Source: Aquabacterium sp.
GTDB taxonomy: Bacteria; Pseudomonadota; Gammaproteobacteria; Burkholderiales; Burkholderiaceae_C
Length of the DNA stretch: 64,000 bases
Reading direction: 5' to 3'
NCBI RefSeq assembly: GCF_016195855.1
Contig: NZ_JACPYU010000003.1
Coordinates: forward strand, 744,001-808,000
The notes under the pieces were generated by a model. That model saw nothing but the letters and a program-made list of their open reading frames with translations. It ran no database searches and was not told the origin of the DNA. The position numbers were made by a program, and so were the translations under genes. Positions 661 through 2,966 of this stretch are shown piece after piece; the stretch's first letter is position 1, and the number at the start of each line of letters is the position of its first letter.

Positions 661-2031
661 ACTGTCTTGACCCTGGGCTTGAACCACACCACCGCCGCTG
701 TCGACCTGCGTGGCCGATTCGCGTTTGCGGTGGACCAACTGGCCCCCACCCTCAAGACGGTCCACCAGCGCCTGACCGGCTCCCCGCACGCTGAAGTGGC
801 CCTGCTGTCCACCTGCAACCGCACCGAGTTGTACTGCGCCGCAGGCGGTCTGGGCGGCCCGGTGCACGCCCTGCGCCATGCGGCGGTGGACTGGTTGTCC
901 GGCATCGGCGGCGTCTCCAGCGAAGAGCTGATGCGCCACACCTATGTGCTGGAAGGCGGCCAGGCGGCGCGCCACGCCTTCCGCGTCGCCAGTGGGCTGG
1001 ATTCGATGGTGCTGGGCGAACCCCAGATCCTGGGCCAGATGAAGCAGGCCGTGCGCGAGGCTGACACCGCCGGCACGCTGGGCACAACCCTGCACCAGCT
1101 CTTCCAGCGCAGCTTTGCCGTGGCCAAGGAGGTGCGCACTTCCACCGAGATCGGCGCGCACTCCATCAGCATGGCCGCCGCGGCCGTGCGCCTGGCCTCG
1201 CAGTTGTTTGAAGACCTGGGCCGCACCAAGGTGCTGTTCGTGGGCGCCGGCGAGATGATCGAGCTCACCGCCACGCACTTTGCCGCCCGCAACCCGCGCA
1301 CCATGGCCGTGGCCAACCGCACGCTGGAGCGCGGCGAAAAGCTCGCCACCCACCTGGGCGCGCAAGCCATGCGCCTGGCCGACCTGCCCCAGCGCCTGCA
1401 CGAGTTCGACATCGTCGTGTCCTGCACGGCCAGCACCCTGCCCATCATCGGCCTGGGTGCCGTCGAGCGAGCGCTGAAGGCCCGCAAGCGCCGCCCCATC
1501 TTCATGGTCGACCTGGCCGTGCCGCGCGACATCGAACCCGAGGTCGCACGCCTGGATGACGTCTACCTCTACACCGTGGACGACCTGTCCACCATGGTGC
1601 AGACCGCTGGCGAGAAGCGCCAGGCCGCCGTCGCCCAGGCCGAAGCCATCATCGAAACCGGCGTGCAAGGCTTTGTGCACTGGCTGGACCAGCGCACCAC
1701 CGTGCCCCTGATCCAGGCCCTGCACAGTCAGGCCGACGCCTGGCGCACCGCCGAGATGGCCCGCGCCCGCAAGCTGCTGGCCAAGGGCGAAGACATCGAA
1801 GCCGTGCTGGAAGCCATGTCGCGTGGCCTCACGCAAAAGATGCTGCACGGCGCCATGGCCGAGCTGCACAGCGCCGACGCCGGCCAGCGCCCGCAGGTGG
1901 CCGCGGCCCTGTCGCGCCTGTTCCTGCGCGGCGAGCTGGTTCCCGGGCGCAACACCACGGCCAGCAGCCCGCCCGACAAGGCCGAGCCGGGGCAAGCCAA
2001 TCGGCATGATCCCCAGGGGGACAAGGCGTGA
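658..2031 (+). CDS. hemA: Glutamyl-tRNA reductase HemA
   Basis: This enzyme reduces glutamyl-tRNA(Glu) to glutamate-1-semialdehyde, the first committed step of C5 heme and tetrapyrrole synthesis. The 457-residue protein starts MTVLTLGLNHTTAAVDLRGR like its family. It contains the catalytic cysteine in LLSTCNRTELY (about residue 50), the GLDSMVLGEPQILGQ signature, a Rossmann NADPH site (VLFVGAGEMIE) and the C-terminal dimerisation helices. Length is normal for the family. Its TGA overlaps the GTG start of prfA by three bases, suggesting translational coupling in a hemA-prfA-prmC operon, a common arrangement in proteobacteria. The divergent small membrane gene and queE lie upstream. Confidence 0.97.
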   Translation: MTVLTLGLNHTTAAVDLRGRFAFAVDQLAPTLKTVHQRLTGSPHAEVALLSTCNRTELYCAAGGLGGPVHALRHAAVDWLSGIGGVSSEELMRHTYVLEGGQAARHAFRVASGLDSMVLGEPQILGQMKQAVREADTAGTLGTTLHQLFQRSFAVAKEVRTSTEIGAHSISMAAAAVRLASQLFEDLGRTKVLFVGAGEMIELTATHFAARNPRTMAVANRTLERGEKLATHLGAQAMRLADLPQRLHEFDIVVSCTASTLPIIGLGAVERALKARKRRPIFMVDLAVPRDIEPEVARLDDVYLYTVDDLSTMVQTAGEKRQAAVAQAEAIIETGVQGFVHWLDQRTTVPLIQALHSQADAWRTAEMARARKLLAKGEDIEAVLEAMSRGLTQKMLHGAMAELHSADAGQRPQVAAALSRLFLRGELVPGRNTTASSPPDKAEPGQANRHDPQGDKA

Positions 2032-2966
2032 GCGCCGGTCTGGCGCCCTCCCTTGCCTCTTCGCTCGACCGCCTGGCCCGCCGCCTGCAAGAGCTGGATG
2101 CAGCCCTGTCCGACCCGGTCATCGCCGCGGACAACAAGCGCTTTCGGGATCTGTCACGCGAGCACGCCGAAGTCAGCAGCGTGTGCGACCTGGCCCAGCG
2201 CCACACCCGCCGCCAGCAGGACCTGGCCGGGGCAAAACAGATGCTGGACGAAGCCGGTGACGACGCCGACATGCGCGCCATGGCCCAGGAAGAAATCGCC
2301 CAGGCCGAAGCCGACCTGACCCAGCTGGAAACGCAGTTGCAGACCGCCCTGCTGCCCAAGGACCCCGACGATGCCCGCAACGCCTTTGTCGAAATCCGCG
2401 CCGGCACGGGCGGCGATGAATCCGCCCTGTTTGCGGGTGACCTCGCCCGCATGTACACCCGCTATGCCGAACGCATGGGCTGGACGACCGAGATCATGTC
2501 GGCCAGTGAGTCCGACCTGGGCGGCTACAAGGAAGTCGTGCTGCGCTTTGAAGGCAACAACGTCTACGGCCGGCTCAAGTTCGAGTCCGGCGGCCACCGC
2601 GTCCAGCGCGTGCCGGCCACCGAAACGCAAGGCCGCATCCACACCAGCGCCTGCACCGTGGCCGTGATGCCCGAGCCAGACGAAACCGAGGCCATCAAGC
2701 TCAACCCGGCCGACCTGCGCATCGACACCTTCCGTGCCACCAAGGAAGCGGCGCTGCGCAAGAGCCTGGTGGGCTCCGGCGACCGCTCCGACCGCATCCG
2801 CACCTACAACTTCCCCCAGGGCCGCCTGACCGACCACCGCATCAACCTCACGCTCTACAAGCTTCTGGCCATCATGGAAGGTGAGCTGGATGACGTGGTA
2901 GCGGCCCTCCTGAGCGCCCAGGCCGCCGACCAGCTGGCCGAACTGGAAGCGGCCACCGGTGTCTGA
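2028..2966 (+). CDS. prfA: Peptide chain release factor 1, in-frame internal deletion removing the GGQ loop
   Basis: RF1 releases the finished peptide at UAA and UAG. The reading frame is open and clearly RF1: coiled N-terminal domain, RAGTGGDESALF, YKEVVLRFEG, and the codon-recognition PAT motif at residues 196-198 (RVPATETQGRIHTSA). The C-terminal GSGDRSDRIRTYNFPQGR is also present. It is only 312 residues against the usual ~360. The sequence passes from DLRIDTFRA (ending at residue 237, base 2738) straight to TKEAALRKSLVG. In normal RF1 about 48 residues lie there, including SGAGGQ with the catalytic Gly-Gly-Gln, and those are absent. A factor like this could read stop codons but should not hydrolyse peptidyl-tRNA. 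The GTG start overlaps hemA; prmC, whose product methylates the missing Gln, follows with an 8-base overlap. A sequence or assembly error is possible. Confidence 0.93.
   Translation: MSAGLAPSLASSLDRLARRLQELDAALSDPVIAADNKRFRDLSREHAEVSSVCDLAQRHTRRQQDLAGAKQMLDEAGDDADMRAMAQEEIAQAEADLTQLETQLQTALLPKDPDDARNAFVEIRAGTGGDESALFAGDLARMYTRYAERMGWTTEIMSASESDLGGYKEVVLRFEGNNVYGRLKFESGGHRVQRVPATETQGRIHTSACTVAVMPEPDETEAIKLNPADLRIDTFRATKEAALRKSLVGSGDRSDRIRTYNFPQGRLTDHRINLTLYKLLAIMEGELDDVVAALLSAQAADQLAELEAATGV

What the first reader, a model, noticed from the sequence alone, without database searches (positions are those of the whole stretch)
2028..2966. Release factor 1 without its catalytic GGQ loop
The prfA frame is fully open and highly RF1-like, keeps the PAT stop-codon recognition motif (residues 196-198), but jumps from DLRIDTFRA (base 2738) to TKEAALRKSLVG, missing about 48 residues that hold GGQ in every known RF1. 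Established knowledge: GGQ is needed for peptide release, and PrmC methylates that Gln. Such a protein should occupy UAG/UAA sites without releasing. A natural, tolerated lesion would imply recoding or a second factor; a precise in-frame loss is also what an assembly or sequence edit would produce. The two flanks both contain cg-t/c-gcc-like bases, so slippage between short matches is conceivable.
Basis: partly seen in the sequence, partly recalled or inferred. Interest (0 to 1): 0.95.

Follow-up and report, generated by a model that had tools for sequence, protein, structure and literature searches.

The report
Release factor gene missing its core
In this bacterial draft genome the gene for release factor 1, which ends protein synthesis at two of the three stop codons, lacks the 58 codons of its peptide-cutting core; this is most likely a local fault of the sequence or assembly, because the stop codon that depends on this factor is still in ordinary use and no sign of compensation was found.

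Summary
The gap is 58 codons (174 bp), not about 48 (144 bp). The window's own genome (an Aquabacterium-like draft, 29 contigs) carries the same sequence and shows no second prfA; only RF2 and ArfB carry GGQ there. The junction is in 1 of 150 family genomes (the own one), and 109 of 109 prfA loci fetched from relatives keep GGQ.

I found no adaptation to a loss of RF1. UAG still ends 28 of 454 called genes in 616 kb, dnaQ and iscS among them. RF2 is unchanged at conserved positions, none of 43 tRNAs reads UAG, and the rest of prfA has not decayed. In 2 of 24 same-genus genomes contigs end inside exactly this block, and the assembly looks short-read. I therefore favour a local assembly or molecule-level artefact (0.62). 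A recent genuine loss remains open (0.30): the junction is clean and in frame, and a k-mer assembler would need reads that carry it. A selected role for a GGQ-less RF1 is unlikely (0.05). Reads across 2738/2739 would decide.

The parts
2028..2966 (+). prfA (release factor 1), open frame of 312 codons, GGQ block absent
2736..2741 (+). deletion junction GCC|ACC (A237|T238); 58 codons (174 bp) absent relative to intact relatives
2613..2621 (+). PAT stop-codon recognition motif (P196-A197-T198), kept
   Evidence: role of the PXT motif as stated in PMC4530459
658..2031 (+). hemA (glutamyl-tRNA reductase), open upstream neighbour, overlaps the prfA start
   Evidence: TIGR01035 over cut-off
2959..3834 (+). 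prmC (release factor glutamine methyltransferase), open downstream neighbour, overlaps the prfA stop
   Evidence: TIGR03534, 296 against cut-off 199.1

Best explanation
The deposited prfA lacks the 58 codons that carry the GGQ loop, and this is most likely a local fault of the draft (a mis-resolved or minority junction), with an intact prfA likely present in the living cells. Shown: the sequence, the rarity of the junction, unchanged UAG use, RF2 unchanged at conserved positions, undecayed flanks, a short-read-like assembly, and contig ends of two same-genus genomes inside the very same block. Inferred: the GGQ block of prfA is much alike in related species and shares exact stretches with prfB, so the assembly graph would branch there; a junction between the short matching R-A codons at the two ends (CGTGCC / probably CGYGCC), from a few deleted or chimeric molecules, was then chosen over the tangled true path. 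If so, RF1 would act here as usual: PAT reads UAG/UAA and the GGQ loop, methylated by PrmC, cuts the peptidyl-tRNA.
For: Junction only in the own genome: 1 of 150 genomes of the family at E <= 1e-14; 0 exact matches of a degenerate junction pattern in the GTDB r220 contigs (own record may be left out). Of the 120 proteins listed (of 7,999 scored) in the protein search, only the window's own P0002 lacks GGQ. 109 of 109 prfA loci from relatives, 104 of them distinct in DNA, contain GGQ. 28 of 454 own genes end in TAG against 9 of 294 in G010, including polA, dnaQ, iscS, mscL and a moeB-like gene; dnaQ ends in TAG in both genomes and iscS ends at the same last residue. RF2 departs at 0 of 197 conserved columns. 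Own RF1 departs at 1 of 126 conserved columns still present, the junction residue. No CUA anticodon among 43 tRNAs. Contig ends lie inside the missing segment in G004 (two contigs overlapping by 67 bp there) and G019: 2 of 24 same-genus genomes, 0.20 expected, P = 0.017, tested after the fact. Own prfB shares 36 bp exactly with the prfA block of 3 of 9 relatives compared, 17-23 bp with the other 6. Draft signs: of 42 of 58 contig ends examined, two pairs share exactly 141 bp; no 16S or 23S found. Metagenome contigs with another in-frame prfA loss exist (P0074, P0108).
Against: The junction is clean, in frame (one chance in three), without N, and lies well inside a 1.0-Mb contig. A k-mer assembler reports only joins present in reads (recalled), so some molecules probably carry the deletion. 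Among 35 orthologue pairs of at least 60% identity no other own gene lacks a block of this size (one 26-residue gap in an 842-residue protein), so the assembly is not generally poor; stated completeness is 99.93%. The rRNA searches also missed several of the 14 control genomes (rings in 9, in 10), so missing rRNA is weak evidence. The contig-end P value is post hoc and rests on rounded contig counts. Own prfA's lost block itself cannot be compared with prfB.
Confidence: 0.62

Rival explanations
1. A genuine, very recent loss of RF1 function in the sequenced population: a 174-bp slippage between the R-A codon repeats removed the GGQ block, and the cells live with it because RF2 (Ala at the position of E. 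coli 246) ends the roughly 94% of genes that stop at UGA or UAA, while tmRNA and ArfB would clear ribosomes stalled at UAG.
For: Clean in-frame junction in a 1-Mb contig. Breakpoint codons agree at 5-6 of 6 bases in 66 of 93 parsed relatives. UGA ends 386 and UAA 40 of 454 called genes. RF2 has Ala before SGAGGQ in 22 of 22 sequences (that this is residue 246 is by my own count). tmRNA and ArfB are present. RF-1-free E. coli B strains exist but grow poorly (PMC4434889, passages), and RF1-less recoded E. coli resolves UAG by near-cognate readthrough, frameshifting and rescue (PMC6207430, passages).
Against: RF1 is described as indispensable in standard-code bacteria (PMC4530459, abstract and start of the introduction). 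UAG is not depleted and ends dnaQ and iscS. RF2 shows no change at conserved columns. No examined relative shares the loss. A GGQ-less RF1 that still bound UAG would be expected to block it (inference).
Confidence: 0.3
2. A selected, working variant: a release factor 1 without its catalytic block that sits on UAG (and UAA) codons without releasing, delaying termination or favouring readthrough as a regulator.
For: Frame, PAT motif and flanking conserved residues are kept; the operon place is kept.
Against: Undecayed flanks are equally expected of a recent loss or an artefact. No intact RF1 is seen beside it to regulate. No other genome or listed protein has it. Structure prediction was uninformative: the deleted protein (mean pLDDT 69.3) and the intact control (62.5) both came out poor.
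Confidence: 0.05
3. Strain mixture or merodiploidy: both an intact and a deleted prfA exist in the sample or the cell, and the assembler kept the shorter path.
For: Would supply the junction reads and keep RF1 working; fits unchanged UAG use.
Against: No second prfA in the assembly; contamination is given as 0.09%, which argues against a second strain in the bin but not against collapsed alleles.
Confidence: 0.03

Closest known systems
Bacterial release factor 1 (prfA; NCBIfam TIGR00019, Pfam PF03462 + PF00472)
   Same: PCRF domain, PAT motif, C-terminal SGDRSDRIRTYNFPQGRLTDHR block, hemA-prfA-prmC order
   Different: 58 residues with GGQ are absent; below the cut-offs of TIGR00019, NF001859 and PF00472
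Engineered RF1-less E. coli (B-95.deltaA; recoded strains)
   Same: A genome that would lack RF1 activity while some UAG stops remain (PMC4434889 and PMC6207430, passages only)
   Different: There RF1 was removed by design, with many or all UAG stops changed; here UAG stops are in ordinary use and the loss itself is in doubt
Domain-3 gene conversion between prfA and prfB (PMC4530459, abstract and start of the introduction seen)
   Same: Concerns the same domain-3 segment, where prfA and prfB are alike
   Different: Conversion replaces the block; here it is absent
Shortened prfA proteins P0074 (338 aa) and P0108 (334 aa) on metagenome contigs
   Same: In-frame loss inside domain 3 of Burkholderiales-like prfA
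   Different: About 28 residues between an imperfect 21-nt repeat spaced 84 bp; GGQ itself is kept

Membership tests
Release factor 1 (prfA) | PCRF domain | tested here: met
   PF03462, 5.1e-74, profile 2-194 of 194
Release factor 1 (prfA) | PXT codon-recognition motif | tested here: met
   P196-A197-T198
Release factor 1 (prfA) | GGQ loop in domain 3 | tested here: not met
   absent; PF00472 matched only at 89-116 of 116, below cut-off
Release factor 1 (prfA) | score above the curated equivalog cut-off | tested here: not met
   395.4 against 423.25 (TIGR00019); 396.8 against 400 (NF001859)
Release factor 1 (prfA) | orthologous place between hemA and prmC | tested here: met
   (TIGR01035 and TIGR03534 over cut-off)
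RF1-less / UAG-reassigned code | UAG depleted or read as sense | tested here: not met
   28 of 454 genes end in TAG; 4 of the 6 TAG genes with a counterpart in the G010 stretch end at or within 2 residues of its end
RF1-less / UAG-reassigned code | UAG-reading tRNA | tested here: not met
   no CTA anticodon among 43 tRNAs; tRNAs in unassembled parts cannot be seen
RF1-less / UAG-reassigned code | RF2 altered to read UAG | tested here: not met
   0 of 197 conserved columns deviate, SPF kept; two own-only residues lie at variable columns

The most novel reading that the evidence does not exclude
A free-living bacterium that has naturally lost release factor 1 catalysis while about 6% of its genes still end in UAG, terminating them by RF2 misreading, readthrough and ribosome rescue: a natural counterpart of the engineered RF1-less E. 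coli, caught just after the loss and before any recoding.
Probability: 0.3. Interest if true: 0.85.

Novelty: not a real feature. Interest (0 to 1): 0.27.

Why it matters
If the deletion were real, it would be a natural RF1 loss-of-function in a standard-code bacterium with a full-sized genome, the first step that codon-reassignment models for UAG need, and would make tolerance of RF1 loss directly testable outside E. coli. If it is an artefact, as I think more likely, the use is practical: the GGQ block of prfA is a place where draft assemblies of this genus can break or lose sequence, so a missing GGQ in a draft genome should not be read as biology without reads.

Tried and rejected
Second RF1 or a PrfH-like substitute: not found; only RF2, ArfB and the window's remnant match PF00472 in the own genome up to E = 10 (ArfB named).

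Recoding of UAG: rejected for now.

A lineage trait: rejected; 23 of 24 same-genus genomes have a prfA match broken at the junction, and the 24th (G008, 82% complete) has no prfA match at all.

GGQ block moved elsewhere (split gene, insertion): not seen; the PF00472 search of the whole genome found no further block.

Structure prediction: led nowhere. The deleted protein gave mean pLDDT 69.3 and the intact control P0003 62.5 with nearly the same alignment, so neither says whether the shortened protein folds.

General bad assembly: not supported. Among 65 reciprocal pairs with the G010 stretch, 13 own genes besides prfA are shorter than 0.87 of the partner. I inspected 4, and they differ at the N-terminus only (or chiefly), which fits start choice by my simple caller; the other 9, each under 45% identity, were not inspected.

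MEGAHIT with k = 141: considered. Two pairs of contig ends share exactly 141 bp, but other pairs share 72-136 bp (42 of 58 ends examined), so I claim only a short-read-like assembly. The paper search on this gave a listing only.

Rows dropped: 2 of 104 full-length prfA loci (an in-frame stop in the cut-out stretch) were left out of the alignment; they and the 5 partial loci do contain GGQ. One of 23 RF2 loci (L266) was left out. 11 of 104 loci could not be parsed at the right flank. In one search the protein letters came from alignment files with gaps, which split P0108's GGQ; it was read instead.

Literature: paper searches were made; no title or abstract start in those listings reported a natural RF1-null free-living bacterium, which is not proof of absence.

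Full report
What is there. Window 2028-2966 is one open frame of 312 codons between hemA (658-2031) and prmC (2959-3834), with overlapping start and stop codons on both sides (both neighbours over an NCBIfam cut-off). The protein is RF1: complete PCRF domain, best NCBIfam models PRK00591 and prfA, both under cut-off, best solved relatives RF1 of E. coli. The PAT motif stands at residues 196-198. After DLRIDTFRA, ending at base 2738, the frame continues at once with TKEAALRKSLVG. Aligned with P0003 and 102 full-length prfA loci, 58 residues (174 bp) are absent, about E. coli residues 230-287 by the two matched stretches.

Where it stands. The window is G000:C20:744001-808000 of a 4,875,293-base draft in 29 contigs. 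The nearest named loci are labelled Aquabacterium or unclassified Burkholderiales. The same sequence is in the whole-genome record, and the public protein set holds the shortened protein as P0002 on a contig of the same length, 1,001,816. So this is not a slip of the window.

Is it shared? In 24 same-genus genomes, 23 have a prfA match that stops near the junction and resumes after it, and one (G008, 82% complete) has none. All 109 prfA loci fetched from relatives contain GGQ: 102 full-length, 2 full-length with a stop in the cut-out, 5 partial; 104 are distinct in DNA, the rest being identical stretches, probably genomes fetched twice. Of the 120 proteins listed in the junction search (7,999 scored), only P0002 lacks GGQ. 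The close intact proteins are P0003 (96% identical) and P0015 (95%, a cluster of 28 sequences). The junction peptide occurs in 1 of 150 genomes of the family, the own one. A degenerate DNA pattern for the junction gave no match in the GTDB r220 contigs, where the own record may be left out. A loss with a different junction in a distant group would escape these searches.

Has the organism adapted? Over 616 kb of the own contig a simple codon-usage caller gave 454 genes, of which 386 end in TGA, 40 in TAA and 28 in TAG; 400 kb of G010 gave 294 genes with 278, 7 and 9. TAG is not depleted (Fisher P = 0.06, towards more). TAG ends polA, iscS, dnaQ, mscL and a moeB-like gene. Six own TAG genes had a counterpart in the G010 stretch; four end at, or within two residues of, its end. 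ARAGORN finds no CUA anticodon in the 43 tRNA genes. RF2 has SPF and ASGAGGQ, and an upstream frame ending RRYL* that looks like the usual programmed frameshift; it departs at none of 197 conserved columns among 22 sequences, with two own-only residues at variable columns. ArfB and tmRNA are present. The rest of prfA has not decayed: 1 departure in 126 conserved columns, the junction threonine. Whatever happened is very recent, or did not happen in the cell.

Why I lean to an artefact. The assembly looks like a short-read draft: of 42 of 58 contig ends examined, a number of pairs share 72-141 bp, two pairs exactly 141 bp; no 16S or 23S was found (these searches rang in only 9 and 10 of 14 control genomes), and sequence that looks like the 16S 5' end and 5S stands at contig ends (by eye). 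The missing block is a weak point in this genus: in G004 two contigs end inside it with a 67-bp overlap, and in G019 one contig ends in it and another begins after it. Two of 24 genomes against 0.20 expected gives P = 0.017, a test chosen after seeing the data. The block is partly shared with prfB: the own prfB shares 36 bp exactly with prfA of 3 of 9 relatives and 17-23 bp with the other 6. P0074 and P0108 on other metagenome contigs show that in-frame losses in this domain turn up in assemblies; their gap lies at an imperfect 21-nt repeat spaced 84 bp, which matches at 16-18 of 21 bases in 92 of 104 loci.

Why I do not close the case. The junction is in frame, without N, in the middle of a 1-Mb contig, and prfA is the only one of 35 well-aligned orthologue pairs in which the own gene lacks so much (the next gap is 26 residues). 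A k-mer assembler does not invent joins (recalled), so some molecules probably carry it. The two breakpoints carry the codons R-A, in relatives mostly CGCGCC, some CGTGCC, agreeing at 5 or 6 of 6 bases in 66 of 93 parsed loci, which is how replication slippage, PCR jumping and graph errors alike would look. RF-1-free E. coli B strains exist but grow poorly (PMC4434889, passages), recoded E. coli resolve UAG by readthrough, frameshifting and rescue (PMC6207430, passages), and bacteria other than E. coli K-12 are said to carry Ala or Ser at RF2 246 (PMC5373646, passages), as here. Hence 0.30 for a genuine recent loss.

Structure prediction did not help: the shortened protein (mean pLDDT 69.3) and the intact control P0003 (62.5) were both poor with nearly the same alignment.

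Verdict. Reads across 2738/2739 would settle it.

Noticed in passing
P0074 and P0108 (database proteins): Two Burkholderiales-like RF1 proteins on metagenome contigs of 3.2 and 11.4 kb lack the same 28 residues or so between GGQH and SNKAKA. In relatives these points carry an imperfect 21-nt direct repeat spaced 84 bp.
   Followed up: partly
G004:C18 end and G004:C27 end (L037, L035): Two contigs of a close same-genus genome end inside the prfA GGQ block with a 67-bp overlap.
   Followed up: yes
G000:C2, upstream of 5071-6090 on the minus strand (L178): prfB has an upstream frame ending RRYL* before the main frame, the usual look of RF2's programmed frameshift.
   Followed up: partly
G000:C20:260063-262954, 377051-377839, 384550-385770: polA, dnaQ and iscS end in TAG in the own genome.
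   Followed up: yes
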